64,000 nucleotides of DNA, taken from assembly GCF_900101265.1 (NCBI RefSeq), contig NZ_FMZS01000005.1, positions 62,001 through 126,000 of the forward strand, in the 5' to 3' direction. Below the pieces are notes generated by a model. That model ran no database searches and had not been told where the DNA came from. It saw nothing but the letters and a program-made list of their open reading frames with translations. Shown one piece after another: positions 1 to 61,276 of this stretch. Source of the stretch: Massilia sp. PDC64. GTDB taxonomy: Bacteria; Pseudomonadota; Gammaproteobacteria; Burkholderiales; Burkholderiaceae_D. Position 1 is the stretch's first letter. The number at the start of each line of letters is the position of its first letter. The position numbers were made by a program, and so were the translations under genes.

Positions 1-1098
1 AACTGGCAGCAGTACGCGGACAAGCTGTCCGACGGGCAAAAAGAGTTGTTCAAGAAGAATCCGGGCTTCTACATGGATGTCTACCCGAGCCACCGTACCG
101 CCGCGCAGCCGGAAGCGGTGCTTGCCAAGACCGTGCGCAATGCCACGAGCTGCAAGACCCTCAAGAACGGCCTGGCGGTCGAGCCGGAATGCCGCGGCGG
201 CATCCCTTTCCCGATCGCCAAGACCGGCTACGAGATGATGTGGAACCACCAGCTGCGCTACAAGGCCGACACCACGACCAAGCAGTCGCGCTCGTGGGTC
301 GTCGATTCCAGCGGCAAGGCCGTCATGACGGCGCAGCAGCAGACGTTCGAGGAAACGCCGTACTACCACGATGAACTCGACGGCCGCGACCCCGAGATGT
401 ACTGGCGCACCTACTCGGTCACCAGCGCGCCGATCCGCAAGGCGGGCGAAGTGACCGGCCTGATGGACTTCCTCGACCCGACCGAGAAGCCGCGCCGCGC
501 CTGGAGCTATGCGCCGGGACAGCGCCGCATCAAGCTGGCGCCCGAATTCTCGTACGACACCCCGGTGGCGAGCATGGGCGGCGTGACCCTGTTCGACGAA
601 CTGTTCGTGTTCTCGGGACAGATGGACCGTTTCGACTTCAAGCTGGTGGGCAAGAAGGAAATGTACGTGCCCTACAACGAGTACAAGCTGTACTTCGGCT
701 GCGGCGTCGAGGAGCAGTTCAAGGAGAAATACCCGAACCCGGCCTGCTGGCGCTGGGAACTGCATCGCATGTGGGTCGTCGAGGCGACGCTCAAGCCGGG
801 CTTCCGCCACGTCTACGCGAAGCGTACCTACTACATCGACGAGGACACCTACGGCGCCATGCTGTACGACGCGTACGACCGCAGCGGCCAGCTGTACCGC
901 TCGATCTTCAACTCGATGGTCCAGCTGTACGACGTCAACGCGCCGTACATGGTCAAGAACGTGGTCTTCGACTTCAACAAGGGCATGTACGCGCTCGTCA
1001 ACGATGGCCTGGTCGGCGGCTACGGCGTGGTCACCAAGCCGCGTCCGAACCGCGAGTTGAACCCGGAATCCATCGTGGCCAAGGAAACTGCACGCTAA
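1..1098 (+). CDS. DUF1329 family protein, 5' end outside window
   Basis: Open from base 1 in the frame that ends at a TAA at 1096-1098, so the start and signal peptide lie upstream of the window. The 365 visible residues match the full-length DUF1329 protein at 59917-61260 along their whole length; shared stretches include YPSHRTAA/YPTHRTAA, GGIPFPI, LFDELFVFSGQMDRFD and WELHRMWVVEA. DUF1329 proteins are exported, LolA/outer-lipoprotein-fold-like proteins of unproven role, usually beside DUF1302 outer-membrane proteins. The next genes (YCF48, MMPL) are the same as after the second copy, so this is the third gene of a conserved cassette whose DUF1302 partner should lie just left of the window. 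Family assignment is firm, function is not known. Confidence 0.9.
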   Translation, partial: NWQQYADKLSDGQKELFKKNPGFYMDVYPSHRTAAQPEAVLAKTVRNATSCKTLKNGLAVEPECRGGIPFPIAKTGYEMMWNHQLRYKADTTTKQSRSWVVDSSGKAVMTAQQQTFEETPYYHDELDGRDPEMYWRTYSVTSAPIRKAGEVTGLMDFLDPTEKPRRAWSYAPGQRRIKLAPEFSYDTPVASMGGVTLFDELFVFSGQMDRFDFKLVGKKEMYVPYNEYKLYFGCGVEEQFKEKYPNPACWRWELHRMWVVEATLKPGFRHVYAKRTYYIDEDTYGAMLYDAYDRSGQLYRSIFNSMVQLYDVNAPYMVKNVVFDFNKGMYALVNDGLVGGYGVVTKPRPNRELNPESIVAKETAR

Positions 1099-1207
1099 TC
1101 CAGTTCCTTGCCGGACAGGACCCGTGCGGCCTGTCCGGCCCTGTGGCGGGCATTGCCGTGGAGCGGTGCCCGCGCGCACGGATTCGTGCATCGCGATGGA
1201 GTCAGTT

Positions 1208-2353
1208 GTGAACAATTTGAATACGCTTAATGCGCGACCCGGCCGCCTGGCCGGCGTCGCGCGACATATGGCGGCGGCGGTGCTCGCCGTCGCCACCCTT
1301 GCCGCGGCCGCGGCGGGTGGTCCGGATCCGATCGACACCGCGGCGGCCCAGTCGGCGGCGGCGCTCAAGCGACCGCTGTCCGGCATCGCCGCGCAAGGCA
1401 GTACCCTCGTCGCCGTCGGCGCGCACGGCACCATCCTGCTGTCGGAAGACGCCGGCGCGACCTGGAAGCAGGCCGCAGTCCCCGTGGCCGCCGACCTGAC
1501 CACGGTACGCTTCACCGGACCGGGCGTCGCCTGGGCGCTCGGCCATGACGGCGTGGCGCTGCGCAGCGCCGACCGCGGCGCGACCTGGAGCAAGGTGCTC
1601 GACGGGCGCACCCTGCTGGCCCTCCTGAACAACCATTACCGCGGCCTGGCCGCGCGCGGCGACGCCGGTGCGGTGGCGGTGCTGGACGAAGTCAAGCGCG
1701 CCGCCGCGCAATCGGCCACGCCGGACGTACTGTCCTATCCTTTCCTGGACATCAGCATCGACGCGGGCGGCGAAGGCTTCCTGGCCGGCGCGTTCGGCCT
1801 GCTGCTGCATACGCGCGACGGCGGCAAGAGCTGGGAACCCTGGCTCGAACGCGCCGACAACGACCGCCGCATGCACCTGTATGCCCTCGAACGGGCGCCG
1901 GACGGCCTGTTCTACCTGGCGGGCGAGCAGGGCCTGCTGCGCCGCTACGACCGCGCGGCGGGCCGTTTCGCGAAGCTCGAGTCGCCTTATGCGGGCACGT
2001 TCTTCGGGCTGAAAGCCGGCGACGCGGGGCTGGCCGCCTTCGGCCTGCGCGGCAGCGCCTTCGTCAGCGCCGACGGCGGGACCAGCTGGAAGCAGGTCGC
2101 GCTCGGCACCGAGGCCACCGTGGTCGACGCCGTGGCCTGCGCGCCGGGCGAGATGGCGTTCGTCACGCAGGACGGGCGGGTCCTGCTCGGCCGCGGCGGC
2201 AAGGCGACCGACGCCGGCGCGGCGCGCGGCGGCGAGGTGGCCGGCGTGGCCCAGGCCGGGGCTGGCCTGCTGGTGCTGGCCGGCAGCGCCGGCACAAGAC
2301 AGGTCCGCATCCACGGCTGCGGCACGGATAACGCAAGAATCGGGAAGAACTGA
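1208..2353 (+). CDS. YCF48/BNR-repeat beta-propeller protein
   Basis: 381 residues. The GTG at 1208 is preferred because GGAG (1198-1201) lies six bases upstream; the in-frame ATG at 1196 would start inside that ribosome site. A hydrophobic Ala-rich segment follows (MAAAVLAVATLAAAAAGG), a likely signal peptide. The rest carries Asp-box/BNR repeats: SEDAGATW, SADRGATW, TRDGGKSW and SADGGTSW. The fold is that of the photosystem II assembly factor YCF48, but here it is probably a periplasmic partner of the MMPL permease that begins one base after its stop. A paralogue sits in the same position at 61277-62353. It may help substrate hand-over between permease and envelope; that is inference from position. 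Confidence 0.82.
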   Translation: MNNLNTLNARPGRLAGVARHMAAAVLAVATLAAAAAGGPDPIDTAAAQSAAALKRPLSGIAAQGSTLVAVGAHGTILLSEDAGATWKQAAVPVAADLTTVRFTGPGVAWALGHDGVALRSADRGATWSKVLDGRTLLALLNNHYRGLAARGDAGAVAVLDEVKRAAAQSATPDVLSYPFLDISIDAGGEGFLAGAFGLLLHTRDGGKSWEPWLERADNDRRMHLYALERAPDGLFYLAGEQGLLRRYDRAAGRFAKLESPYAGTFFGLKAGDAGLAAFGLRGSAFVSADGGTSWKQVALGTEATVVDAVACAPGEMAFVTQDGRVLLGRGGKATDAGAARGGEVAGVAQAGAGLLVLAGSAGTRQVRIHGCGTDNARIGKN

Positions 2354-2354
2354 C

Positions 2355-4811
2355 ATGGCAGCGCACGGCAATCAACCCCGCATGCCCGTGGTACGGGACG
2401 TGCAAGACTTCGATCGCGCTTCGGGCAACCTGCTCGAACGCGTGATCTTCAACCACCGCCTGGTCGTGCTGCTCGCATGCCTGCTGGCCACGCTGTTCCT
2501 CGGCTATTCGGCGACCCGGATCAAGGTCAATGCCAACTTCGAGCGCATGATCCCGCTCGGCAGCCCGTATATCCAGAACTACCTCGCGAACAAGGATCAG
2601 CTGCCGGGCCTCGGCAACACGGTGCGGATCGTCGTCGAGAACAAGACCGGCGACATCTATGACCCGGCCTACCTCGACGTCATGCGCAAGGTGAACGACG
2701 ACCTGTACATGATCGACGGCGTCGACCGCTCGTGGATGAAGTCGATCTGGATGCCGATCGTGCGCTGGCGCGAGGTGACCGAGGACGGCATCACGGGCGG
2801 CCCCGTGATGCCGCCCCAGTTCGACGGCAGCCCCGCCGAACTGGCCAGGCTGCGCGCCAACGTGGCCAAGGCCGGCATCGTCGGGCGCCTCGTCGCGCTC
2901 GACATGAAATCGAGCATGATCGTCGCGCCGCTGCTCGACCGCGACCCCAAGACCGGCGAGCCGCTCGACTACGGCGCGTTCTCGCGCAAGCTGGAAGACA
3001 AGATCCGCACCTACGAGAGCGCGAAGATCGGCATTCACATCGTCGGCTTCGCCAAGATCGTCGGCGACCTGATCGACGGCCTGAAGGCGGTGATGATGTT
3101 CTTCGCCGTCTCGGTGGCCGTCGCCACCGTGTTCGTCTACCTGTACACGCGCTGCGTGCGCAGCACCGTGCTGCTGGTGGCGGCCGCGGTGATCGGCGTC
3201 CTGTGGCTGCTCGGCCTGATGCAGCTGCTCGGCTACGAGCTCGACCCGTACTCGATCCTGGTCCCGTTCCTGATCTTCGCGATCGGCCTCTCGCATGGCG
3301 CCCAGAAAATGAACGGCATCATCCAGGACATCGGGCGCGGCACCCACAAGTACGTCGCCGCGCGCTACACGTTCCGCCGCCTGTTCGTGGCCGGCGTCAC
3401 GGCGCTGCTGGCCAACATCGTCGGCTTCGCCGTGCTGATCATCATCGACATCCCGGTCATCCGCGACCTCGCGATCACCACCAGCATCGGCGTGTCGGTG
3501 CTGGTCTTCACGAAGCTGTTCCTGATCCCGGTGGCGCTGTCCTACATCGGCATCGGCAAGAAGGCGGCGCAGCGCGCGCTGGACGCCGACCGCGACATGG
3601 CCCAGGGCCAGTCGCTGCTGGGCCGCGTGTGGGGCCGCCTCGACGCGCTGACCGGGCGCCGCTGGGCGTTCGGCGTGAGCCTCCTCGCGCTGCTCGTCAC
3701 CGTGGCGTCGGCGATCGTGATGCAGGGCCTGCGCATCGGCGACCTCGACGCCGGCGCGCCGGAACTGCGGCCCGACTCGCGCTACAACCGCGACAACGCC
3801 TACATCACGCGCAACTACGGCCTGTCGAGCGACCAGTTCGTGGTGATCATGAAGACCGCCGACGAGGGCTGCCGCCTGTATTCGGCGCTGACGAAGATGG
3901 ACGGCCTGGCGCAGCTGCTGCGCGCGGACCCGGCGGTGCAGACCACCACGTCGCTGGCCGAGGCCGTGCGCTTCACCACCGCCGCGATGTCGGAAGGCAG
4001 CGCCAAGTGGATGACGATCAGCCGCAACCAGGCGATCACCGACGGCGCCATGACGGCGGCGGCGATCGCGACGCCCGACATCACCAACCAGAGCTGCTCG
4101 GTGTCGCCCCTCGTGGTCTACCTGCGCGACCACAAGGCGGACACCGTGGCGCGCATCCTCAAGACGTCGAGCCAGTACGCCCAGGCCAACAACACCCCGG
4201 CCGGCGCCAAGGAGCCCGTGACCTTCCTGCTGGCGGCGGGCAATGCCGGCATCGAGGCCGCCACCAACATCGAGGTCGGCAAGAGCATCGTCATGATGTA
4301 CCTGGCCGTCTACGGCTCGACCGCCTTGCTGTGCCTGATCACGTTCCGCAGCGTGCGCGCCACCATCGTCGCGCTGATCCCGCTCGTGATCACGACCGTC
4401 CTGTGCAAGGCGCTGATGGTCTGGCTGGGCATCGGGCTGAAAGTGGCGACCCTGCCGGTGATCGCGGTCGGGGTGGGGGTCGGGGTCGACTACGCGCTGT
4501 ACCTGCTGTCGGTGCAGCTGGCGTGCCAGCGGCGCGGCGACAGCCTGCGCGCGGCCTACCGCCGTTCGCTCGACTTCACCGGCAAGGTCGTGGCCCTGGT
4601 CGGCATGACGATGGCCGCCGGCGTCGTGACGTGGGCCTGGTCGCCGATCAAGTTTCAGGCCGACATGGGCATCCTGCTGACCTTCATGTTCCTGTGGAAT
4701 ATGCTCGGCGCGCTCGTGCTCACGCCGGCGCTGTCGTATTTCCTGCTCAATCCCCGCCGCGCACAGGACGATGCGTGCGTCAGCCCTACCTTGGAGAAAA
4801 ACTATGTTTGA
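2355..4811 (+). CDS. MMPL/RND-family transporter permease
   Basis: 818 residues, shorter than tripartite RND pumps (about 1,000+) and typical of the MMPL/sterol-sensing-domain branch. It has a TM helix near residues 35-55, a periplasmic loop, a TM bundle, a second loop (from about 460) and a second TM bundle. The second half has the proton-relay motif GVGVGVDYALYLL; the matching place in the first half reads FAIGLSHGAQKMNG with no Asp-Tyr pair. The right-hand paralogue shows the same SHGAQ motif. The start follows the YCF48 stop by one base and the end overlaps the next gene by eight bases, so it is translated within the operon. A lipid or hydrophobic substrate is likely, direction unknown. 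Confidence 0.87.
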   Translation: MAAHGNQPRMPVVRDVQDFDRASGNLLERVIFNHRLVVLLACLLATLFLGYSATRIKVNANFERMIPLGSPYIQNYLANKDQLPGLGNTVRIVVENKTGDIYDPAYLDVMRKVNDDLYMIDGVDRSWMKSIWMPIVRWREVTEDGITGGPVMPPQFDGSPAELARLRANVAKAGIVGRLVALDMKSSMIVAPLLDRDPKTGEPLDYGAFSRKLEDKIRTYESAKIGIHIVGFAKIVGDLIDGLKAVMMFFAVSVAVATVFVYLYTRCVRSTVLLVAAAVIGVLWLLGLMQLLGYELDPYSILVPFLIFAIGLSHGAQKMNGIIQDIGRGTHKYVAARYTFRRLFVAGVTALLANIVGFAVLIIIDIPVIRDLAITTSIGVSVLVFTKLFLIPVALSYIGIGKKAAQRALDADRDMAQGQSLLGRVWGRLDALTGRRWAFGVSLLALLVTVASAIVMQGLRIGDLDAGAPELRPDSRYNRDNAYITRNYGLSSDQFVVIMKTADEGCRLYSALTKMDGLAQLLRADPAVQTTTSLAEAVRFTTAAMSEGSAKWMTISRNQAITDGAMTAAAIATPDITNQSCSVSPLVVYLRDHKADTVARILKTSSQYAQANNTPAGAKEPVTFLLAAGNAGIEAATNIEVGKSIVMMYLAVYGSTALLCLITFRSVRATIVALIPLVITTVLCKALMVWLGIGLKVATLPVIAVGVGVGVDYALYLLSVQLACQRRGDSLRAAYRRSLDFTGKVVALVGMTMAAGVVTWAWSPIKFQADMGILLTFMFLWNMLGALVLTPALSYFLLNPRRAQDDACVSPTLEKNYV

Positions 4812-5769
4812 CCTGCTGCTGTCAGCCGACATGATGCTGCCCGACCCGGACGGCATGACCGACCTGCTCGTGAGCAAGCTGGGGGTGCACAGCCACCCGA
4901 ACTGGCGCCAGGCCTTCGACAACCATCCGTACATCGCGCATTTCCTGCGCGTGCACAAATCGCTGGCGGTGTCGCCGACGCGCCTGGAACCGCAGTGGCA
5001 CCTGGACTACGACAATCCCGGCGATCCGATGTTCCACGAGTTCCTGGAGAGCCTGAAGGACTACCAGGGCCGCCACCGCCCGATGCTGACGCACTCGGTG
5101 GTGCTGGCGCTGCAGGGCCCGAAGTTCGACGTCTTCGTCGACAAGCTGATGCGCCGCGGTCTGGCCTTCCGCATGGCCCAGCGCACGCCCGAGATGCCGT
5201 TCGACCGCCTGTGGCTGGGCGCGACGCCGGAACGCCCGCGCTACACGCCCGCCGTCGACGGCGGCCTGTGCATCGAGGTGATGCCGACCGAGCCGCTGCA
5301 GATGCCGCCCGAAACCTTCGCCAGCCCGCCGGCCCAGCCGCGCGACCCCAAGCCGGGCGACATGGTGCGGATCAGCGCGCGCGCGTTCATCGTGCGCGAT
5401 CTCGACCACACGCTGCGCTGCTGCTCGACGAACCTCGACTGGGAACCGCGCGGCGGCGTCGAACTGCTGGCCCGCGAAGGCCAGCGCCGCGCCGTGATGC
5501 CGTTCACGGTCGCCAACAGCGCCGCCCTGCACGTGATCCAGCCGACCGCCTGGAACACCCCGGCCGCGCACTACCTCAACAACTGGGGGCCGGGCCTGTA
5601 CTACATCCGCATCGCCGTGCACGGCCTGGAAGCCAAGGCCGACGACCTGCGCGCGCGCGGCACGCGCTTCACCTGGGTCGAGGAATCGGAGTCCGCCGGC
5701 GGACGTCCGCTGATCCGGATCGAGCCGTCGGAACTGCGCGGCCAGGTCATCGAGTTCGAGGAAGCGTGA
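4804..5769 (+). CDS. VOC (glyoxalase-fold) family protein
   Basis: 321 residues. ATG at 4804 has GGAG at 4793-4796 (seven-base gap) and overlaps the end of the MMPL gene. The C-terminal half contains a vicinal-oxygen-chelate-like module: ARAFIVRDLDHTLRCC near residue 195, then YYIRIAVHGLEAKADDLRARG and a terminal GQVIEFEE, the usual closing beta strand that carries a metal-ligand Glu in active VOC enzymes. The N-terminal half may be a degenerate repeat of the fold. VOC enzymes include extradiol dioxygenases, isomerases and epimerases; nothing here fixes the reaction. Being inside a catabolic operon suggests it acts on a ring-cleavage or CoA-thioester intermediate, but that is inference. Confidence 0.6.
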   Translation: MFDLLLSADMMLPDPDGMTDLLVSKLGVHSHPNWRQAFDNHPYIAHFLRVHKSLAVSPTRLEPQWHLDYDNPGDPMFHEFLESLKDYQGRHRPMLTHSVVLALQGPKFDVFVDKLMRRGLAFRMAQRTPEMPFDRLWLGATPERPRYTPAVDGGLCIEVMPTEPLQMPPETFASPPAQPRDPKPGDMVRISARAFIVRDLDHTLRCCSTNLDWEPRGGVELLAREGQRRAVMPFTVANSAALHVIQPTAWNTPAAHYLNNWGPGLYYIRIAVHGLEAKADDLRARGTRFTWVEESESAGGRPLIRIEPSELRGQVIEFEEA

Positions 5770-5770
5770 C

Positions 5771-6601
5771 ATGGACGACACCGAATCGAAGGGCAGCGAC
5801 GTCGTGCGGGTGCGCGTCGTCAACGAGGCCGTGACCATCGAGCGCGAAGGCGGCCTCGGTTGGGTGGTGCTGACGCGCCCCGGCCAGATCAACGCCATCA
5901 ACGACGACATCCGCAACGGCGTGCCGGAGGCGCTGCGCGAACTCGACGCCGACCCGGCGATCCGCGTGATCGCGATCCGAGGCGCGGGTCCGCGCGGGTT
6001 TTGCGCCGGCGCCGACATCAAGGAAAAGCGCGGTCCGGAAACCGCGATCGAGGTGCGCACGCGGATGCAGGGCGCACGGTGGATCGAAGCAATCGACGCC
6101 GTCCAGAAGCCGGTGATCGCCGCGGTGCACGGCTATTGCATGGGCGGCGGCCTGGAGCTGGCGCTGGCCTGCGACATCCGCTACGCGACGCCGGACGCCG
6201 TCTTCAGCCTGCCGGAGACGGCGCTTGGCCTGATTCCCGGCGGCGGCGGCACCCAGCGCCTGGCGCGCGTGGTGGGACCCGGCCGGGCGATGGACCTGCT
6301 GCTGACCGGCGAGCGCCTCGACGCGGCCGCGGCGAAGGACATCGGGCTGGTCACGCGCGTCGCGCGCGCGCCGGAGGCGCTGGTCGACGAGGTACGCGCG
6401 TTCGCCACGCGCATCGCGGCGCGCGCGCCGGCGGCCACGCTGCTGGTCAAGCGCGCGGCCCGCAGCGCCCTCGACCTGGAACTGAAGCAGGGGCTGGACC
6501 TGGAACTGGACCTGTTCGCCCTGCTCAAGCCGAGCGAAGACGCACGAGAAGCCGCGCTGGCCTTCAGCGAAAAGCGGCCGCCCAATTTCATCGGCCGCTG
6601 A
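5771..6601 (+). CDS. enoyl-CoA hydratase/isomerase (crotonase family)
   Basis: 276 residues, normal crotonase length. Oxyanion-hole motif RGFCAGADIKE and the segment GYCMGGGLELALACDIRYA are present, followed by SLPETALGLIPGGGGTQRL. Both acidic residues of hydratase-competent crotonases are kept: the Glu in GGGLELA and the one in PETALGLIPG. So water addition to an enoyl-CoA is plausible, not only isomerisation. It begins two bases after the VOC stop. No CoA ligase or thiolase is visible in this operon, so the CoA ester must be made elsewhere or by upstream genes. The N-terminal 20 residues extend beyond the usual family start; an internal start is possible. Confidence 0.9.
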   Translation: MDDTESKGSDVVRVRVVNEAVTIEREGGLGWVVLTRPGQINAINDDIRNGVPEALRELDADPAIRVIAIRGAGPRGFCAGADIKEKRGPETAIEVRTRMQGARWIEAIDAVQKPVIAAVHGYCMGGGLELALACDIRYATPDAVFSLPETALGLIPGGGGTQRLARVVGPGRAMDLLLTGERLDAAAAKDIGLVTRVARAPEALVDEVRAFATRIAARAPAATLLVKRAARSALDLELKQGLDLELDLFALLKPSEDAREAALAFSEKRPPNFIGR

Positions 6602-6629
6602 GCGCGGCCCAACCTGACGGAGACCGGGT

Positions 6630-7472
6630 ATGAACGAACAAGAACACAAAGGGAAGCTGGACGGACGGGTCGCGATCGTGACCGGCGCCGCCGGCGGCCT
6701 GGGCGCCGAGGCGGCGCGCGTGCTGGCCGCGCATGGCGCGCGGGTAACCATCGTCGACATCGACGGCGAGGGCGCGCGCAAGGTCGCGGCGGGCATCGAG
6801 GCGCAGGGCGGACAGGCGCTGGCGCTGCGATGCGATATTTCGAGCGAGGCCGAGGTGAGCGCGATGGTCGAGGCGGTGGTGGCGCGCTTCGGACGCGTCG
6901 ACGTCCTGCACAACAACGCGGCCGTACTGAACGTGGAACAGCGCCGGCGCGACCGCGACGTCGTCAACATGGACGTCGACGCGTGGGATCGCGCCATGGC
7001 GGTCAACCTGCGCGGCGCCATGTTGTGCAGCAAATACGCGATCCGCGAGATGCTCAAGCATGGGCGCGGCTCGGTAATCTTCGTCACCTCCGGCCTGGGC
7101 GCCCAGGGCGACCTGTCGCTGACGGCCTACGCGGCGTCGAAGGCGGCGCTGGCGATGCTGGCGCGCTCGGTGGCGGCGCAGTACGGCAAGCAGGGCATCC
7201 GCTCGAACGCGCTGCAGATCGGGCTGGCCCCGGCCGAGAACGCGCACGAGAGCATGCCGGCGCCGCTGCTCGAGATCCTGCGCGAGAACCACCTGACGCC
7301 CGAACTGGGCACGCCGCGCCAGATCGCCGACGTCGTGGCGTTCCTGGCGTCCGACGAATCGGCCTTCGTCACGGGCACCACACTGGTGGCGGACGGCGGC
7401 TTCGGCAGCCATACGCCTTCGCTGGTGGCGATGAAGGCCTTGTTTGCGCAGACCGGCGCGAAGGGGATGTGA
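6630..7472 (+). CDS. short-chain dehydrogenase/reductase (SDR)
   Basis: 280 residues of classical SDR. Cofactor motif TGAAGGLG near residue 20, Asp of VDID at the end of beta-2 (favouring NAD+ over NADP+), NNAAV after beta-4, Ser in FVTSG and the YAASK catalytic Tyr-Lys pair. GGAG at 6619-6622 sets the ATG at 6630. The stop overlaps the next ATG by one base, so the two are probably coupled. Such SDRs oxidise hydroxyacyl-CoAs, ring cis-diols or alcohols; with the neighbouring oxygenase-like pair either a diol dehydrogenase or a 3-hydroxyacyl-CoA dehydrogenase role is reasonable. The exact substrate cannot be read from sequence. Confidence 0.9.
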   Translation: MNEQEHKGKLDGRVAIVTGAAGGLGAEAARVLAAHGARVTIVDIDGEGARKVAAGIEAQGGQALALRCDISSEAEVSAMVEAVVARFGRVDVLHNNAAVLNVEQRRRDRDVVNMDVDAWDRAMAVNLRGAMLCSKYAIREMLKHGRGSVIFVTSGLGAQGDLSLTAYAASKAALAMLARSVAAQYGKQGIRSNALQIGLAPAENAHESMPAPLLEILRENHLTPELGTPRQIADVVAFLASDESAFVTGTTLVADGGFGSHTPSLVAMKALFAQTGAKGM

Positions 7473-8398
7473 TGAAAGCTGCCATCATTCATGAACGCGG
7501 CGCGGCGCCGGTCATCGCGGAGTTTCCGGAACCCGCGCCGCGCGACGGCGCGGTCCTGATCGACGTCGACACGGCCGGCCTGGGCGGCTGGGACGTGCTG
7601 GGCGCGTACCGCCTCGGCGTCCAATACCCGTGCGTGATCCGCGGCGAGGGCGTGGGCCGCGCGCCGGACGGGCGCCGGGTCTATTTCGGCGAGCGCTCCG
7701 TGCTGCCGTACGGCGCCTGGGCCGAGCGCACCCTGGTGCCGGTCGAGGAAGTCTGGGACGTGCCGGACGACGTCGACGACCGCACCGCGATCGCCATGGG
7801 TATCGCCGCCACCGGCGCCCTGGTGCCGCTGGAGCAGGCAAAGATCCAGCCGGGCGAGCAGGTGCTGGTGCTGGGCGCGACGGGCACGCTGGGCCAGATC
7901 GCGCTGCAACTGGCGCGTTACCTGGGCGCCGGGCGCGTGGTCGCCGCGGCCCGCTCCGCCGACGCGCTGGAGCGGCTGAAGGCGCGCGGCATCGCCGACG
8001 AGATCGTGGTGCTGGGCGGCGGCGACGATGCCGCGAAACTGCAGGCGGTCACGGAAGACGGCTTCGACGTCGTGCTCGACCTGGTCTGCGGCCAGCCGAT
8101 GCTGGACGCCCTGAAGGCGACGCGCTGGGGCGCGCGCATCATGACCATCGGCACCGGGGCCGGGCGCAAGGTCAACCTCGACATCGCCGACCTGCTGTTC
8201 CGCACGCTGTCGTGCATCGGCACCGGCCAGCGGCCGCCGGCCGACCGCCGCGCGATCTGGGAGCGCCTGCTGCGCATCGCGCGCGAGCAGGACATCCGGA
8301 TCGACTACAGCGATTTCGCGTTCGACGACGCCGGCGCGGCCTGGGCGGCGCAGGTGGCCGGACCGCACGCGAAGATCACCGCGCGCGTGCGCGGCTGA
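7472..8398 (+). CDS. zinc-independent quinone oxidoreductase-like dehydrogenase (MDR family)
   Basis: 308 residues. ATG at 7472 shares a base with the SDR stop. N-terminal GroES-like domain, then a Rossmann domain with GATGTLGQIALQLA near residue 130. The zinc-ligand signature GHE of alcohol dehydrogenases is absent; the equivalent place reads RGEGVG, so it belongs with the zinc-free quinone reductase/enoyl reductase branch that uses NADPH. Within the operon it may reduce a double bond or a quinone made by the adjacent oxygenase. Family is firm, substrate unknown. Confidence 0.87.
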   Translation: MKAAIIHERGAAPVIAEFPEPAPRDGAVLIDVDTAGLGGWDVLGAYRLGVQYPCVIRGEGVGRAPDGRRVYFGERSVLPYGAWAERTLVPVEEVWDVPDDVDDRTAIAMGIAATGALVPLEQAKIQPGEQVLVLGATGTLGQIALQLARYLGAGRVVAAARSADALERLKARGIADEIVVLGGGDDAAKLQAVTEDGFDVVLDLVCGQPMLDALKATRWGARIMTIGTGAGRKVNLDIADLLFRTLSCIGTGQRPPADRRAIWERLLRIAREQDIRIDYSDFAFDDAGAAWAAQVAGPHAKITARVRG

Positions 8399-8422: not shown

Positions 8423-9337
8423 ATGACATCAGGACAATGGTGGATCGTCGCGCTGTCGGAGCAGCTGGCGCCGGGCAAGACGCTGGCGGTGGTCTGCGAC
8501 GGCGTGCAGGTGGCGCTGTTCCGCAGCGCCGGCGGCGAAGCGTTCGCGCTGGAAGACCGCTGCCCGCACCGGCGCGTGCTGCTGTCGCCCGGACAAGTTA
8601 AGCCGGGCGGCCTGCAATGCCCCTATCACGGCTGGACCTTCGACGGCGCGAGCGGGCATTGCACCGATATTCCGAACCTGCGGCGCGACGAGAAGATCCC
8701 GCCGGCGGCGGCCCGCGCCTATCCGGTCGCCGAATTGAATGGCTTCATCCACGTGCACAGCGGCACCGGCGACATGCCGGGCACGCTTCCCGGCGCGGCC
8801 TACCGGGCGGCGGGGCGCGAATTCACGGGGACCGCGGTGGGGGCGATCGCGTTCCCCGACTATCTGGACGTCATGCTCGACGGCCCGGAGTGCCTGATCG
8901 ACTTTCCGGGCGTGACGATCACCGACTTCTTCATCGGCGATCCGCGCCGCGACGGCGGGCATCTCGTGCTCGACCGCGGCGCCGTGTGGAAGGGCAGGGG
9001 ACCCGGTCCCGCTTTCGTGCGCGACCATCCGCTGCTGGTGCGCACCCGCGTGCCGCTGGCGGGCGGCGACATCGTGGTGGAATTGCTGGATGCGGCCGAG
9101 CAGCCGCTGGTGACGCTGCTGGTCGCCGCCACCGCCAACCGGCGCGGCACCACCAGCCTCGTATGGCGCGGCTTCACCCATGCGGGCGCGCATGCCGCGC
9201 CGCCGGGCTGGCACCTGCGCCGGCTGGCCGGGGCGGCGCCGTTCACGGTGCGGGCCGACATCGACGGACGCGCCATCGCGGCGCTCGAAGCGGCGCCGTC
9301 GCGCGAACGGCGGGATCAACTGGAGGATGCCGCATGA
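8423..9337 (+). CDS. Rieske [2Fe-2S] protein lacking the mononuclear iron site
   Basis: 304 residues. An intact Rieske motif is visible: C47-P-H49, sixteen residues, C66-P-Y-H69, followed by GWTFDGASGHC, as in ring-hydroxylating oxygenases. The C-terminal 200 residues look like the remains of an oxygenase catalytic domain, but where the iron motif DxxHxxxxH should be the sequence runs FPDYLDVMLDGPECLIDFPGV, with no His pair. It can therefore carry electrons but probably cannot activate oxygen. It overlaps the next gene by four bases (ATGA), and that gene has exactly the site missing here. A heteromeric oxygenase with this as the electron-transfer subunit is my inference; a stand-alone ferredoxin role is the alternative. 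Confidence 0.85.
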   Translation: MTSGQWWIVALSEQLAPGKTLAVVCDGVQVALFRSAGGEAFALEDRCPHRRVLLSPGQVKPGGLQCPYHGWTFDGASGHCTDIPNLRRDEKIPPAAARAYPVAELNGFIHVHSGTGDMPGTLPGAAYRAAGREFTGTAVGAIAFPDYLDVMLDGPECLIDFPGVTITDFFIGDPRRDGGHLVLDRGAVWKGRGPGPAFVRDHPLLVRTRVPLAGGDIVVELLDAAEQPLVTLLVAATANRRGTTSLVWRGFTHAGAHAAPPGWHLRRLAGAAPFTVRADIDGRAIAALEAAPSRERRDQLEDAA

Positions 9338-10368
9338 ACATGGATGACAAGGCGGCGCGCTTCGCCGCGCCGGACGCGAAACGCGACTGGATACCCGGTA
9401 ACATCGACCTGCGCGACACCTGGTTCCCGGTGGCGTACAGCGCCGACGTCGGCAACCGCCCGTTGCGCCGCATCGTGCATGCGCAGGACGTCTACCTGTG
9501 GCGCGAGCTGGGACGGGTGCGCGCGGCCGAGTTCCGGCCCGACCTGCTGGAGAGCCGGCGCGCCGGCGCGACCGCCTTCACCGGCGGTTCGTGCTACTAC
9601 CGCGTCCATGAACGCTACGGCTACGTGTGGGTCTGGTACGGCAATCCCGACAACGCGCACGCGGACCTGATCCCTCTCATTCCGTTCCTGCCGGCGGACG
9701 GCGCGGGCATCCCGCGCTATACCCAGCGCTCGGTGCGGTTCGATGCCGCGTCGCCGCTGTCGGTCGAGAACCTGATCGACCTCACGCATGCCGATTTCCT
9801 GCATGCGAACACCATCGGCGACGGGCAATCGGAGCGCGACGTGGTCGAGTTCAGCTCGACGTCCGAGACGCTGACGCGGACGCGCATCGTCACCCGCAAG
9901 TCGGTGGCGCCGGTGATGCGCTGGATCGGCGGCGTGCGCGCGCAGTACCAGGACCTGCGCGCGGTGCTGCACGTCCACCTGCGCAACAACCTGTGCATTT
10001 CGTACCCCAGCTTCACGCCCGGCTACGCGATACCCAACGTGCAGCCGTTCGTGCCCGTCGGGAAGCACCGCTCGCGCGTCGACCAGACCAACTACACCGT
10101 GCACGCGCCGGCGCCGTTCCGCTGGCTGATGCCGCGCATCTCCTACGTCATCCAGCCGCAGGACAACTCGGTGCTGCGGCCGCAGAACGCGCGCTACTTC
10201 GATCCGGGCCAGCGGCGCGATCTCAGCTCGCGCTTCGACGCGCCGGGCAACCGTTACCGCGTGCTGATGACGCGCCTGGCCGAACGCCAGCGCGCCGGCG
10301 ACTTCGGCTACGGCGCCGATGCCGATCCGGCGCAGGATATCTCCGCCATCCTCGGGATGCGGCCCTAG
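9334..10368 (+). CDS. Rieske-oxygenase catalytic-domain protein lacking the Rieske cluster
   Basis: 344 residues. GGAGG at 9322-9326 sets the ATG at 9334, overlapping the previous stop. The catalytic half is of the vanillate/dicamba demethylase type: NLIDLTHADFLH gives D149, H152 and H157, and QPQDNSVLRPQ supplies D277 as third ligand, a complete 2-His-1-carboxylate site with the bridging Asp. In the N-terminal half, aligned to Rieske domains by DTWFPVA and YGYVWVWYGNP, both the CxH and CxxH pairs are gone. Electrons must come from another protein; the upstream half-oxygenase is the obvious candidate. Demethylation or hydroxylation is the family chemistry. Confidence 0.85.
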   Translation: MNMDDKAARFAAPDAKRDWIPGNIDLRDTWFPVAYSADVGNRPLRRIVHAQDVYLWRELGRVRAAEFRPDLLESRRAGATAFTGGSCYYRVHERYGYVWVWYGNPDNAHADLIPLIPFLPADGAGIPRYTQRSVRFDAASPLSVENLIDLTHADFLHANTIGDGQSERDVVEFSSTSETLTRTRIVTRKSVAPVMRWIGGVRAQYQDLRAVLHVHLRNNLCISYPSFTPGYAIPNVQPFVPVGKHRSRVDQTNYTVHAPAPFRWLMPRISYVIQPQDNSVLRPQNARYFDPGQRRDLSSRFDAPGNRYRVLMTRLAERQRAGDFGYGADADPAQDISAILGMRP

Positions 10369-11577
10369 GTGCAGGCCGGCTCCGTCGTCCGGGCGTCCGG
10401 CCTGCCTGGCATCACCTTGATCCTGGCCGGGCTGGCGATGCTCGGCCCGTTCTCGATCAACGCCTACCTCCCGTCGTTCCCGGACATGGAACGGACGTTG
10501 CACACGGACCGGGTCGCGCTGCAGCAGACGATCTCGGTGTATTTCGCCGCGTTCGCGTTCATGTCGCTGTGGCATGGCGCGATTGCCGATGCCTGCGGGC
10601 GGCGCCGGGTTGTGCTGGCCGGACTGGCCACGTATGCGCTGGCCTCGCTGGGCTGCGCATGCGCCACGCGCGTCGGGCAGCTGCTGCCGTTGCGCGCGCT
10701 GCAGGGCTTCTCCGCCGGCGCCGGCATCGTGATCGGCCGCGCGGTGGTGCGCGACCTGCACGAGGGGCCGCTGGCGCGGCGCATGATGTCGCAGGTCGTC
10801 ATGATGTACGGGCTGGCGCCGGCGGTCGCGCCGCTGGCCGGCGGGGCGCTCCAGCGGGCGTTCGGATGGCGCGCCGTGTTCCTGTTTCTGGCGCTGCTGG
10901 CGGCCGGCCTGTTCGCGGCGGTGGCGTTGCGCCTGCCGGAGACCCTGGCGCCGCAGGCGCGCCAGCCGTTCCGGCTCGCGCCGCTCGCGCGGGGCTACGC
11001 GCGCGTGCTGGGCAACCGCGCGTTCATGACCTGGGCGCTGTCCTACGCCGCGATGTTCGGCGCGTTCTTCATCTACGTGCTGTCGGCGCCCGTGTTCCTG
11101 ATGCGGCACCTCGGCCTGGGCGAAGCGGACTTCCTGTGGCTGTTCGGACCGGCGACGGCGGGACTGGTCGCCGGCTCGGCGCTGGCCGGCAAGGCCGCCG
11201 CGCGCTGGCCGGTGCGGCTCACGCTGCAGGTCGGATTCGCGCTGATGGGCGCGGCGATCGCTTTCGACCTGGCCATCTGCCTGGCGGCCCCGGCGGGCGC
11301 CGGCTGGTACGTGCTGCACCTGTTCGTGTTCAATCTCGGCATGGCGCTGGCGATGCCGACCCTGACGATCCGGGGCCTCGACTGCGTCCCCGACCGGCGC
11401 GGCATGGGGTCGTCGGTGCAACTGTTCGTGCAGACCGGCTTCAATGCCCTGATCGCGGCCGTCCTCGCGCCCCTGCTGTGGGGATCGCTCATGTCGCTCG
11501 CGCTCGGCGCGGCCGCGCTGTTCCTGTGCGCCGGCGCCGGCGTGCTGCTGGTCGCGCGCTTACCGGCACATTCCTGA
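10369..11577 (+). CDS. Bcr/CflA-type MFS exporter
   Basis: 402 residues, about twelve hydrophobic segments. The start is a GTG directly abutting the previous TAG, with no good ribosome site, so translation is probably coupled. Opening segment SINAYLPSFPDMERTL and the loop motif GAIADACGRRRVVLAG are typical of the Bcr/CflA drug-proton antiport branch of the major facilitator superfamily, as is RALQGFSAGAGIVIGRAVVRD in TM4-5. It would sit in the inner membrane and export a small hydrophobic compound, here perhaps the pathway substrate or a toxic intermediate. Confidence 0.85.
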   Translation: MQAGSVVRASGLPGITLILAGLAMLGPFSINAYLPSFPDMERTLHTDRVALQQTISVYFAAFAFMSLWHGAIADACGRRRVVLAGLATYALASLGCACATRVGQLLPLRALQGFSAGAGIVIGRAVVRDLHEGPLARRMMSQVVMMYGLAPAVAPLAGGALQRAFGWRAVFLFLALLAAGLFAAVALRLPETLAPQARQPFRLAPLARGYARVLGNRAFMTWALSYAAMFGAFFIYVLSAPVFLMRHLGLGEADFLWLFGPATAGLVAGSALAGKAAARWPVRLTLQVGFALMGAAIAFDLAICLAAPAGAGWYVLHLFVFNLGMALAMPTLTIRGLDCVPDRRGMGSSVQLFVQTGFNALIAAVLAPLLWGSLMSLALGAAALFLCAGAGVLLVARLPAHS

Positions 11578-12741: not shown

Positions 12742-13311
12742 TTACAGGAAGATGCCGAGGTTAGGCGTACCCAGCACCGCCTGGTCGATGATGACTTCGC
12801 GCCGGGCCAGCTGGTAGCCCGATTCGGTTTTGCGGATCACGTCGTGACGCTCGCACGGGACCAGGTCGAACTTGTCGTGGTCGAAACGGTTCCGGGTCAT
12901 CAGCAGGTAGCTGTGCACCTTGAATTCGTCTTCCTTGTCGGTCCGGTAGACGCGGATGTTCGAGACCAGGTGCTTGGTGCGCGACGGCGGATCCTCACCC
13001 CACGCGCTGCGCGTGTCCATGACGCGCATCACACGCAGCATGATCGAGCGGTAATCGTCGTACATGTGCTGGACGGTGCGCACCACCGACTTGTCCTGGT
13101 CGCGCGTGGCGCGGGTATGCCGCAACGGCACGGTGTATTCGATGTCCTTGGCGACCATCGCGATCCAGTCGCGCAGGCGCAACGTATCGAACAGTTCGGC
13201 TTCGTCGTACAAGAACTCGACCATGTCGTTGTACAGCGGGCTGCCGACCGGGACCCGGTTGGCGCGCAGCGACGGCGGCAGCGGCGTCGGCTCGAGCGGG
13301 TTCTTTTCCAT
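12742..13311 (-). CDS. aromatic-ring-hydroxylating dioxygenase, beta subunit
   Basis: 189 residues, typical of the small subunit with the NTF2/SnoaL-like cone fold. AGGAG precedes the ATG at 13311. Recognisable segments are FLYDEAELFDTLRLRDWIAMVAKDI near residue 30, then DDYRSIMLRVMRVMD, SRTKHLVSNIRV and the closing RREVIIDQAVLGTPNLGIFL, where family members have the strand that packs in the alpha3-beta3 ring. The beta subunit has no cofactor; it supports structure and sometimes specificity. It follows the alpha gene by 41 bases in one operon. No ferredoxin or reductase gene is adjacent. Confidence 0.92.
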   Translation of the reverse strand: MEKNPLEPTPLPPSLRANRVPVGSPLYNDMVEFLYDEAELFDTLRLRDWIAMVAKDIEYTVPLRHTRATRDQDKSVVRTVQHMYDDYRSIMLRVMRVMDTRSAWGEDPPSRTKHLVSNIRVYRTDKEDEFKVHSYLLMTRNRFDHDKFDLVPCERHDVIRKTESGYQLARREVIIDQAVLGTPNLGIFL

Positions 13312-13352
13312 GGGTGTCTCCTGGGGGTGTGGTTGGGGTACGGGTTGCGCGC

Positions 13353-14753
13353 TCATTTTTCGCTCGTCATCAGCTCGTGCCAGTACTTCCACCACGCCCA
13401 CTGGGTGTCGTCCTTCGTGAAGCCGTCGCCGACGTGGCCCGGTCCCGGCCAGCCTTCCGGCGCGCCGTTCTCGAACAGGGCCTGGTACTTCATGGTGATG
13501 GTCTTGCTCATCGCGCCTTTCGCCACTTCGGTCTGGTGCGGCCAGGTGTCGGAGTCTTCCATCTCGACCATGCCGGAGGTGCCCAGCATCTGCACCGACT
13601 GGCGCAGCATGCGTGCCTTGAGTTCGGGCGGCGTGTCCTTCTCGGCGAAGATCCAGTTCATGAACTCGAGCTTGTCCGGACCTTTCGGGATGTAGGCGTG
13701 CAGGGCGCAGGCGCCGATGATCGTGCCGTCCGGCTGCGGCAGATAGATGAATTCGAACAGGCCGTTCGGGAAGAATCCGCCGACCTGGGGCGGACGCCAG
13801 GACATCAGCTTGAGCTGGCCGTCGTCGAAGCGTTCCAGTAGTTCCGGTACCATCGCGGGCGTGATGCCGGGCGGCGGCAGGACGGTCAGCTTCTCGGCCG
13901 GGGTCAGCTCGGCCGGATTCTTGCCGGTCAGGCGCACGATCTTGCGGTCGAGCTCGATGCAGCGCAGCGCATGGCCGTGGTCGGTCCAGACTTCGCTGCC
14001 GTACATTTCCGGCGACAAGTCGGCACCTTTGCCTTCCGCATCCGGCTTTTTCGCGTACGGACCGACTTCGCCCAGCCAGCGGTGCAGGGTCAGGGTATGG
14101 AATCCGTCCGCGGCGGACTGCTCGCAGGCGGTCTTCCAGTTCGCATTGATGCGGAAGCGCTGCGGCGGGCCGAGGACTTCGAGGCCGCCTTTCGTGCGCA
14201 GGAACAGGGTGTCGAAATAGTACTTGGCGTCGCCGAAGAATTCTTCCAGGCTGGGGCCGTCGATATTCCAGGTCGCGAAGATCAGGCCGCCATACAGCGC
14301 GACGCGCGCCTTCTTCAGGCCGAGCTGTTCCTTCGGCGTCATCTTCCCGTGCATGCACTCCTTCTCGATCGGGGCGCCGATGAAATCGCCGTTCGGCTTG
14401 AAGGCCCAGCCATGGTAGATGCACATGTGGACGTTCGTGTTGCCGGCGTCGTGCGTCTGCACCCGCATCGCGCGGTGCGGGCAGACGTTCAGCGAGACGT
14501 GGATCTCGTTGTCGCGGTCGCGCGCGACGATGACGGCGTCGGAACCCATGTCGCGCGTGACGAAGTCGCCCTTGTTCGGGATTTCGGTCTCGTGTCCCAG
14601 GAAGATCCAGGTCTTGGCGAAGATCCGCTCCATCTCGAGTTCATAAAGCTCGGGGTCGGACAGGGCGCGTACCTTGACTTCGCGTGTCTCGTGGTTGATC
14701 AGGTCCGAGATCGTGGTCCCGTCCCGCAGTGTCGTTTCGGCATGCTGGTGCAT
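13353..14753 (-). CDS. aromatic-ring-hydroxylating dioxygenase, alpha subunit
   Basis: 466 residues. Start at 14753 (MHQHAE) chosen because AAGGAG sits just upstream; a longer frame runs into the promoter. Rieske ligands C91, H93, C111 and H114 (17-residue spacer, CIYHGW). The catalytic iron site is ADGFHTLTLH with bridging D216 and ligands H219 and H224. Together with the beta subunit it would add O2 to an aromatic ring to give a cis-dihydrodiol, using electrons from a reductase encoded elsewhere. The ring substrate cannot be named; the operon holds only alpha and beta. Transcription should start near 14777 from the promoter at 14784-14811. Confidence 0.93.
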   Translation of the reverse strand: MHQHAETTLRDGTTISDLINHETREVKVRALSDPELYELEMERIFAKTWIFLGHETEIPNKGDFVTRDMGSDAVIVARDRDNEIHVSLNVCPHRAMRVQTHDAGNTNVHMCIYHGWAFKPNGDFIGAPIEKECMHGKMTPKEQLGLKKARVALYGGLIFATWNIDGPSLEEFFGDAKYYFDTLFLRTKGGLEVLGPPQRFRINANWKTACEQSAADGFHTLTLHRWLGEVGPYAKKPDAEGKGADLSPEMYGSEVWTDHGHALRCIELDRKIVRLTGKNPAELTPAEKLTVLPPPGITPAMVPELLERFDDGQLKLMSWRPPQVGGFFPNGLFEFIYLPQPDGTIIGACALHAYIPKGPDKLEFMNWIFAEKDTPPELKARMLRQSVQMLGTSGMVEMEDSDTWPHQTEVAKGAMSKTITMKYQALFENGAPEGWPGPGHVGDGFTKDDTQWAWWKYWHELMTSEK

Positions 14754-14783
14754 CGTTGTCTCCTTTGTTTTCCTGCTCTTCGA

Positions 14784-14811
14784 ATTGTACACAAATAAGA
14801 ATTTTGTTCAA
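14784..14811 (-). promoter_or_regulatory. sigma-70 promoter with embedded palindrome for the dioxygenase operon
   Basis: On the minus strand TTGAAC (14811-14806) and TACAAT (14789-14784) are 16 bp apart. The spacer and the inner part of the -35 hold an inverted repeat, CACAAA-N7-TTTGTT on the + strand (14790-14808). The same palindrome with the same 7-bp spacer lies inside another N16 promoter at 17316-17343. A repressor binding there would block RNA polymerase at both. The promoter match is good; the repressor is inferred. Confidence 0.6.
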
Positions 14812-40437: not shown

Positions 40438-41349
40438 TCAGCCCAGGCTGGCCGTGAGATCGTCGTACAGCTCTTCGTACGACAGCCGGCGCGGGATGAT
40501 CTTCTGGTCGAGCGCCCAGTCGATTGCCAGCTCGATGCCTTTGCGGTTCGCTTCGTAGCCGATCGACGGGAAGATCTTGGGCACGCCACCCTCGGTCAGA
40601 CCGCGGCTCTCGACGACCATGCGGTACAGCTCGCGCACGATGTCCGGGCGCTGCTTCGACAGGTCCTGGTGCACGACGAACATGTGGTTGATCGGGACGA
40701 CGCCTTCGCGCGCGAACCAGTCCTTCGCCGCTTCCTGCGCGTTCGGCACCAGGGTGCGCACGCGCGGGTCCTTCGGCATGTCCTCGCCCAGCAGGGCCGC
40801 CGCCAGCTCGCCGTCCAGCATCATCTGCGGAATCGACGATCCCTTGGGTAGGCGCTCGCAGTTCGGCGGGTCGGTGAACTCGGCCAGGTGGCCGTCGCCC
40901 AGGGTCATCCAGGTCACCTTGTCGAGGTCCACGCCGTATTCGTGGCGCAGGATGCCGCGGATCCACAGAGCCGTCGTTTGCGTATAGGTGCGCACGCCGA
41001 CGCGCTTGCCCTCGATGTCCTTCGGATCCAGGTGGCCGAAATCACTGTTGAAACCCGCGCAGTGGTGCTGGAAGCGGCCCGAGATGGGTGTCGGCAGCAG
41101 CACATATGGCTTGCCGTAGGCTTTCGCCTGCAGGAACGTGACGATCGCCAGTTCGCCGGCATCGAACGCGTTTTCCCGCACCATCGCTTTAAAACCGTTG
41201 TGCGCCGGTGTGGGCCCGCAGAAATCGAGGTTGACGATATCGGACTTCACGCGCCCGTCGCGCAGCGCCTTCGTGACCGCGTATTCGGCGAGGTTCACCT
41301 TCAGCGTCGGTACGCCGGTGTAGTCGGTTCCAGTTCCGTTGGTAGTCAT
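40438..41349 (-). CDS. 4,5-dihydroxyphthalate decarboxylase-like protein, copy 2
   Basis: 303 residues. GGAG before the ATG at 41349. Family features: [23 protein letters not shown] at the start, [35 protein letters not shown], and [27 protein letters not shown]. The fold is that of periplasmic binding proteins (NMT1/SsuA type), but without a signal peptide and as cytoplasmic decarboxylases in the phthalate pathway. It is similar in layout to the first gene of the operon (48063-49049) but clearly diverged. It could act on a second carboxylated ring or stand in a different step. Confidence 0.75.
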
Positions 41350-41374
41350 GCTGTATCTCCTGTAACTTGATGAA

Positions 41375-42922: not shown

Positions 42923-42923
42923 C

Positions 42924-43781: not shown

Positions 43782-43803
43782 CATATTCCTCGTGTTTGAT
43801 GTG

Positions 43804-44787: not shown

Positions 44788-44814
44788 GTTTGTTACTCCT
44801 TCAGTGTTTCGTTG

Positions 44815-46116: not shown

Positions 46117-46137
46117 CGCGTTCTCTCTTGTCGTGCT

Positions 46138-46157
46138 GCGCCGGCCGAGGCCGGCGC
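46138..46157 (-). other. intra-operon hairpin
   Basis: Perfect 9-bp inverted repeat GCGCCGGCC-GA-GGCCGGCGC in the 45-base gap between amidohydrolase and transporter. No U run, so more likely an mRNA-processing or stability element than a terminator. Confidence 0.5.
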
Positions 46158-46161
46158 GCCG

Positions 46162-59892: not shown

Positions 59893-59916
59893 TTCCACAA
59901 TAGTCAGGAGACGACA

Positions 59917-61260: not shown

Positions 61261-61276
61261 GATCGTGGAGCGTTTC

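What the first reader, a model, noticed from the sequence alone, without database searches (positions are those of the whole stretch)
8423..10368. Complementary half-oxygenases: one gene keeps the Rieske cluster, its overlapping partner keeps the catalytic iron
The 304-residue protein has C47/H49/C66/H69 but no DxxHxxxxH. The 344-residue protein, overlapping by ATGA, has D149/H152/H157/D277 but neither CxH nor CxxH. Each looks derived from a complete oxygenase that lost the opposite centre. A known parallel is caffeine demethylation, where NdmC lacks the Rieske domain and NdmD supplies one; here the donor is another oxygenase-like protein, not a reductase fusion. Inference: they form a heteromer in which the cluster of one feeds the iron of the other across the subunit interface.
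Basis: partly seen in the sequence, partly recalled or inferred. Interest (0 to 1): 0.82.

Follow-up and report, generated by a model that had tools for sequence, protein, structure and literature searches.

The report
Two-gene Rieske oxygenase, centres split
Two neighbouring bacterial genes each make one half of an oxygen-using enzyme, one holding the iron-sulfur cluster and the other the catalytic iron, and they have been kept together as a pair in many proteobacteria, so the enzyme probably works only when both proteins join.

Summary
Gene A (8423-9337) has a complete Rieske [2Fe-2S] site and no iron triad. Gene B (9334-10368) has the 2-His-1-Asp iron site; the stretch that would carry the cluster ligands is deleted. 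The genes overlap by ATGA.

A genome scan with B kept 80 loci (best 80 of 131). In 79, A lies directly upstream; in the 80th the contig starts inside B. The cluster ligands are invariant in 65 of 65 aligned A rows and the iron ligands in 58 of 58 B rows, while the lost positions drift. No orphan of either gene showed in samples of 101, 369 and 199 genomes.

A is predicted as a whole Rieske-oxygenase fold with a degenerate catalytic domain. An A-B read-through model from a relative gave pTM 0.85 (no control run), suggesting that the chains pack together. B keeps the aspartate that normally faces the neighbour's cluster.

Best explanation: an obligate heteromeric Rieske oxygenase in which A's cluster reduces B's iron across the interface. 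Cluster-iron distance, stoichiometry, reductase and substrate are unknown. Precedents are NdmCDE and, closer, the two-chain chlorophyllide a oxygenase of the alga Micromonas. Five library searches aimed at such a pair showed no bacterial example.

The parts
8423..9337 (+). Gene A: Rieske-cluster subunit, 304 aa; Rieske domain plus a degenerate catalytic-like domain without iron ligands
   Evidence: AlphaFold model pLDDT 90.0, pTM 0.89; VIA-align to dicamba monooxygenase Z 22.8
8561..8629 (+). [2Fe-2S] ligand codons of A: C47, H49, C66, H69
   Evidence: invariant in 65 of 65 rows
8879..8905 (+). Degenerate iron site of A: D153-x-P155-E156 to F161 in place of DxxHxxxxH; D153 and P155 invariant, ligand positions variable
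   Evidence: hhalign with 10 other oxygenases; column counts
9334..10368 (+). Gene B: catalytic-iron subunit, 344 aa; VanA_C-type catalytic domain plus an emptied Rieske scaffold
9334..9337 (+). ATGA overlap of A stop and B start
9532..9597 (+). Deletion scar in B (residues about 67-88) where both cluster-binding loops of complete oxygenases would lie; partly hypervariable
   Evidence: hhalign gap; column counts
9778..9804 (+). Bridging Asp D149 and iron ligands H152, H157 of B
   Evidence: invariant in 58 of 58 rows; roles by alignment to other oxygenases
10162..10164 (+). Third iron ligand D277 of B
   Evidence: invariant in 58 of 58 rows; role by alignment to other oxygenases
2355..8398 (+). 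Upstream genes on the same strand: MMPL transporter, VOC/glyoxalase-like, enoyl-CoA hydratase, SDR, zinc-type dehydrogenase; order kept in the Massilia, Aromatoleum, Thauera and Zoogloea loci
10369..11577 (+). Downstream Bcr/CflA-type MFS transporter

Best explanation
A and B are the two obligate subunits of one Rieske non-heme iron oxygenase. A accepts an electron from a ferredoxin or reductase on its [2Fe-2S] cluster. The A-B interface copies the head-to-tail interface of ordinary Rieske-oxygenase trimers, so A's cluster lies beside B's D149 and passes the electron to the iron held by B's H152, H157 and D277, where O2 is activated and a substrate oxidised. Shown: complementary, invariant metal-ligand motifs; adjacency; homology of both to complete oxygenases; a high-pTM joint model. 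Inferred: stable complex, cluster-to-iron transfer, catalysis. Unknown: stoichiometry, donor, substrate.
For: Adjacency: A directly upstream of B in 79 of 80 loci, the 80th truncated at the contig start. No orphans: relatives, B in 5 of 101 and full-length A in the same 5; Betaproteobacteria sample, B in 1 and full-length A in 1 of 369, the window's own genome; Pseudomonas sample, B in 9 of 199 and full-length A adjacent in the same 9; plasmids, the same 4 of 72,556 records hold at least 80% of each. Reciprocal conservation and decay. B keeps bridging Asp D149 in 58 of 58 although it has no cluster. In ordinary enzymes this carboxylate links one subunit's cluster to the next subunit's iron: in CntA (where it is Glu205) 12.2 A between and 44 A within a subunit, and its mutants were inactive (PMC7948474, passages); as Asp it is reported essential in three dioxygenases (PMC5033481, passages). 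Read-through A-B model of a relative: 666 aa, pTM 0.85 despite a linker at pLDDT about 30. In 4 of the 50 rows shown, that model aligns to one oxygenase chain across both subunits at rmsd 18.1-18.7 A, so A's Rieske domain is not in the within-chain position relative to B. A and B distance matrices correlate at r 0.97 over 75 distinct pairs, which mostly shows co-inheritance.
Against: No experiment. The model tool gives no coordinates, so cluster-iron distance was not measured. The joint model is of Pseudomonas profundi, not of the window pair. Two rows (KshA) superpose the A half plus a piece of B up to residue 571-572 at rmsd 4.0-4.6, which I cannot interpret. The 51 weaker relatives among 131 were not examined, and the 80 loci include near-identical sequences and two from one genome. 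The genome samples score only a capped number of candidates per genome. Only 36 of 75 pairs have the same nearest neighbour in A and in B, and 6 of 44 well-supported A splits conflict with well-supported B splits, so some partner exchange or tree error exists. No reductase was identified.
Confidence: 0.8

Rival explanations
1. A is a dedicated Rieske electron carrier that docks on B only transiently, as Rieske ferredoxins do on oxygenases, and B forms its own homotrimer.
For: A's Rieske domain also resembles Rieske ferredoxins. Pairing and conservation would look the same.
Against: A keeps a whole oxygenase-like second domain modelled with confidence, not needed by a ferredoxin. B keeps the bridging Asp in 58 of 58, though a docked carrier could use it too. 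The joint model has pTM 0.85.
Confidence: 0.12
2. A is a regulatory or structural pseudo-oxygenase, and B receives electrons directly from another ferredoxin, so the cluster in A is not on the electron path.
For: A non-Rieske [2Fe-2S] ferredoxin-like gene lies in the fetched stretch in 18 loci, mainly sphingomonads.
Against: Cluster ligands are invariant in 65 of 65 A rows while A's iron-site positions drift. The extra ferredoxin fits equally well as the donor to A and was not seen in the other fetched stretches.
Confidence: 0.05
3. The two genes are decayed or misassembled remnants, or two unrelated enzymes that merely share an operon.
For: None found beyond the missing motifs. The pyrazon-oxygenase authors treated two alpha-subunits without the cluster motif as probably inactive (PMC7907043, passages).
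Against: Intact open frames and complementary sites across beta-, gamma- and alphaproteobacteria down to 25% (A) and 38% (B) identity. The gene neighbourhoods differ between groups while the pair stays together.
Confidence: 0.02

Closest known systems
Chlorophyllide a oxygenase of Micromonas pusilla (two-chain CAO)
   Same: A Rieske oxygenase found in two polypeptide chains; it accepted electrons from VanB and formed chlorophyllide b in vitro; authors cite a suggested heterodimer and think something like a trimer of dimers likely (PMC9615114, passages). That each chain carries one metal site and both are needed is recalled from Kunugi et al. 2013, cited there but not held.
   Different: Eukaryotic, chlorophyll biosynthesis. 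Sequence relation to A/B not tested. Here the genes are bacterial, overlapping or adjacent, and in varied, mainly catabolic-looking clusters.
NdmCDE 7-methylxanthine demethylase, Pseudomonas putida CBB5
   Same: The catalytic subunit NdmC lacks the Rieske cluster, which comes from another polypeptide (PMC4408171, passages).
   Different: There the Rieske domain is fused to the reductase NdmD, with a GST-like NdmE. Here the donor is an oxygenase-shaped subunit with no reductase domain found.
Dicamba O-demethylase DdmC, guaiacol O-demethylase (7qwt), GxtA/SxtT
   Same: Among the nearest solved relatives of both A and B by profile search and of A by structure.
   Different: Each has both metal centres in one chain (by the general description in PMC12445004, section 6).
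NdmA/NdmB alpha3-alpha'3 heterohexamer
   Same: A Rieske oxygenase built from two different alpha-type subunits (PMC12445004, section 6).
   Different: By the review's general description each alpha-subunit has both centres; no complementary loss is described there.

Membership tests
Rieske non-heme iron oxygenase (complete alpha-subunit) | CxH-CxxH cluster and 2-His-1-carboxylate iron in one chain | tested here: not met
   Split between A and B in the 82 A and 83 B sequences examined
Rieske non-heme iron oxygenase (functional unit made of A plus B) | Both metal sites present in the assembled enzyme | tested here: inconclusive
   Ligands present across the pair and co-encoded in 79 of 80 loci; assembly only predicted
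Rieske non-heme iron oxygenase fold | Rieske domain plus helix-grip catalytic domain | tested here: met
   A: VIA-align Z 22.8, rmsd 3.3, 278 aligned to 3gke_B. B: PF19112 and profile alignment over 24-314; B half of the joint model to CntA 6zgp_G Z 17.9, rmsd 4.5, 270 aligned
Rieske non-heme iron oxygenase quaternary structure | Cluster of one subunit about 12 A from the iron of the next in a C3 assembly | not testable with these tools
   No coordinates or multimer prediction; bridging Asp retained in B
NdmCDE type | Catalytic subunit without cluster | tested here: met
   B lacks both cluster motifs
NdmCDE type | Rieske domain fused to a flavin/NADH reductase | tested here: not met
   A has only Rieske hits in Pfam and an oxygenase fold
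NdmCDE type | GST-like NdmE subunit | tested here: inconclusive
   None among the window neighbours scanned; not searched genome-wide
Two-chain CAO of Micromonas | Cluster and iron on two separate oxygenase-like chains | tested here: met
   Architecture only; that CAO divides the sites this way is recalled
Two-chain CAO of Micromonas | Chlorophyllide a oxidation; orthology | not tested
   No algal sequences in the collections used

The most novel reading that the evidence does not exclude
A widespread bacterial class of asymmetric Rieske oxygenases built from a cluster-only and an iron-only paralogue. If they close as threefold rings like other members, either mixed trimer (A2B or AB2) has exactly one live cluster-to-iron junction: a natural single-site Rieske oxygenase in which the electron can come from only one identified neighbour.
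Probability: 0.4. Interest if true: 0.75.

Novelty: new variant of a known kind. Interest (0 to 1): 0.62.

Why it matters
In ordinary Rieske oxygenases the inter-subunit electron path is studied in trimers whose alpha-subunits each carry both centres. Here evolution has separated them, so each centre and junction can be changed independently. It also warns that 'cluster-less' or 'iron-less' oxygenase genes should not be called dead before the next gene is checked: a published study excluded two alpha-subunits for lacking the cluster motif (PMC7907043, passages). The pair marks oxidation steps, for which I found no description, in Pseudomonas, Paraburkholderia, Massilia, Thauera and sphingomonads.

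Tried and rejected
Sequencing error or pseudogene: rejected, intact and conserved across the loci. Pairing with the nearby two-subunit dioxygenase (12745-14792): not needed, since its genes were seen in only 14-15 of the loci compared. Substrate by context: not settled. Neighbours differ by group: MMPL/YCF48/DUF1329 with enoyl-CoA hydratase in Massilia, Aromatoleum and Thauera; CoA-transferase, acyl-CoA dehydrogenase and APH-type kinase in Pseudomonas and Paraburkholderia; LLM/F420 and sulfotransferase genes in sphingomonads. A steroid link (SdmA model hit to A, 78 bits against a cut-off of 600) is too weak. The viral-contig scan with B found no relative. Gene calling by longest ORF was poor in this GC-rich DNA and was replaced. 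Paper searches: five aimed at split or cluster-less oxygenases (one search returned nothing, its terms being narrow) and four at precedents or mechanism; between them they gave NdmCDE and Micromonas CAO as split cases.

Full report
OBSERVATION. A (8423-9337, 304 aa) and B (9334-10368, 344 aa) lie on the + strand and share ATGA at 9334-9337. A has C47, H49, C66 and H69 and matches Pfam Rieske; B has D149, H152, H157 and D277 and matches VanA_C; neither matches the other's domain.

SETTING. The window is G000:C25:62001-126000 of a 7.5 Mb genome. A Massilia putida plasmid carries the pair at 93.4% (A) and 98.8% (B) identity with the same neighbours, annotated as MMPL transporter, lactoylglutathione lyase, enoyl-CoA hydratase, SDR and zinc-binding dehydrogenase upstream and an MFS transporter downstream.

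THE PAIR ELSEWHERE. The genome-contig scan with five B sequences confirmed 131 relatives and kept the best 80. In 79 of the 80 an A homologue lies directly upstream on the same strand; the exception, L035, starts inside B. The loci are not all independent: with the window and two plasmid loci they give 74 distinct A and 74 distinct B sequences, and L049 and L050 lie in one genome. The 80 include Massilia, Pseudoduganella, Aromatoleum, Thauera, Zoogloea, Stutzerimonas, Pseudomonas, Halopseudomonas, Paraburkholderia, Polaromonas, Trinickia, Acidocella and sphingomonads. Plasmid records add Croceicoccus marinus and Novosphingobium resinovorum, where A and B are again adjacent. Minimum pairwise identity is 25% for A and 38% for B over 75 distinct pairs. 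The pair is constant while its neighbourhood changes between groups, so it behaves as one module.

ORPHAN TEST. Near relatives (E <= 1e-20): B in 5 of 101; A in 7 of 101, of which 5 are full-length in the same genomes and 2 match only the Rieske part of longer proteins. Betaproteobacteria sample (E <= 1e-30): B in 1 of 369; A in 16 of 369, of which 1 is full-length (the window's own genome) and 15 match only the N-terminal part, in open frames of 329-419 aa. Pseudomonas sample (E <= 1e-30): B in 9 of 199; A in 14 of 199, of which 9 are full-length and adjacent to B in the same 9 genomes and 5 are Rieske-part matches only. Plasmids: the same 4 of 72,556 records hold at least 80% of A and of B. 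No orphan was seen, within the tools' limit on candidates scored per genome.

COMPLEMENTARY DECAY. In 65 A rows C47, H49, C66 and H69 never vary. The column aligned with the first iron His (A position 156) holds E, S, Q, G, H, A, N or D among its commonest residues (H in 5 of 65), and position 161, where the second His would stand by spacing, holds only F, I, M, L or Y, while D153 (aligned with the bridging Asp) and P155 never vary. In 58 B rows D149, H152, H157 and D277 never vary; the residues replacing the cluster loops (about 70-79) are hypervariable with gaps. Profile alignment places B 24-314 on other oxygenases with a gap across both cluster loops and aligns B's N-terminal scaffold with A's Rieske domain with the same gap. 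So B is not a free-standing catalytic domain: it keeps the emptied Rieske scaffold.

STRUCTURE. The window A model has pLDDT 90.0 and pTM 0.89 and matches whole oxygenases, best dicamba monooxygenase 3gke_B (Z 22.8, rmsd 3.3, 278 aligned, model 1-304). In 19 relatives A and B are in one frame with a single TGA between them. Sixteen such read-through pairs plus 53 A-only and 46 B-only rows gave a 666-residue model with pTM 0.85, mean pLDDT 84.8 and a disordered linker at 307-341. My reading is that two bodies of similar size floating independently would give a pTM near 0.5, so AlphaFold places A and B with confidence; this was not controlled. Of the 50 structure matches shown for this model, most cover the A half, two cover the B half (CntA 6zgp_G, Z 17.9, rmsd 4.5; 7yls_B, Z 14.1, rmsd 5.2), and four span both halves at rmsd 18.1-18.7 (best 3gke_A, Z 20.5, 299 aligned, model 13-644). 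I read these four as A's Rieske plus B's catalytic domain matched piece by piece, with A's Rieske domain about 40 A away from the within-chain position (a rough estimate assuming pure translation). That fits a neighbour-type position but does not prove it. Two KshA rows reach residue 571-572 at rmsd 4.0-4.6; I cannot interpret them.

MECHANISM. In known enzymes cluster and iron are about 44-45 A apart within a chain and about 12 A apart between neighbours, and the bridging carboxylate (Asp, or Glu in CntA) is essential where tested (passages of PMC7948474 and PMC5033481, section 6 of PMC12445004). The bridging Asp sits three residues before the first iron His in the examples given there (Asp180/His183 and Asp218/His221), as D149/H152 do in B. 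Since transfer is already between chains, losing one centre from each of two paralogues leaves a working junction only where A's cluster meets B's iron. B's invariant D149 is the strongest single-residue argument. Both proteins have their nearest solved relatives in the DdmC/7qwt/GxtA group, consistent with a duplication inside that group followed by reciprocal loss; no tree with complete oxygenases was built.

RING LOGIC (inference). In a threefold ring either A2B or AB2 has one live junction; an A3B3 assembly or an AB dimer is also possible.

DONOR AND SUBSTRATE. Unknown. A [2Fe-2S] ferredoxin-like gene lies in the fetched stretch in 18 loci. Contexts look catabolic in Massilia and Pseudomonas and F420/sulfotransferase-rich in sphingomonads. 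I make no substrate claim.

KNOWN OR NEW. [quoted passage not shown] Micromonas CAO is in two chains and active in vitro (PMC9615114, passages); the assignment of one centre to each chain is recalled from Kunugi 2013, which is not held. Five searches of the held open-access library aimed at such pairs did not show a bacterial pair of complementary oxygenase subunits; I saw listings and, for named papers only, passages, and subscription papers are mostly outside the library. I therefore file this as a new variant of a known kind.

Noticed in passing
window 58213-63999: A second set of DUF1302, DUF1329-like, YCF48-like and (by sequence similarity) RND-type transporter genes, paralogous in part to the set at 1-4811 upstream of the pair.
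   Followed up: partly
window 12745-14792: Two-subunit aromatic-ring dioxygenase (HcaE/HcaF-like, below the models' cut-offs for HcaE/HcaF equivalogs) on the opposite strand, its genes seen near the pair in 14-15 loci.
   Followed up: partly
window 40441-47013: Cluster with LigB-type ring-opening dioxygenase, HpcH/HpaI aldolase, TPP enzyme and amidohydrolase, apparently a separate aromatic-compound pathway.
   Followed up: no
L013 and L014 (plasmids of Croceicoccus marinus and Novosphingobium resinovorum): The pair sits near coenzyme F420 biosynthesis genes (cofC, cofH, npdG and others) and LLM/F420 oxidoreductases on large plasmids of alphaproteobacteria.
   Followed up: no
L049 and L050 (Pseudomonas fluorescens PS662): Two copies of the A-B module in one genome.
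   Followed up: no
window 8879-8881 (A D153): A keeps an invariant Asp aligned with the bridging Asp although its own iron ligands are gone; reason unknown, perhaps interface structure.
   Followed up: partly
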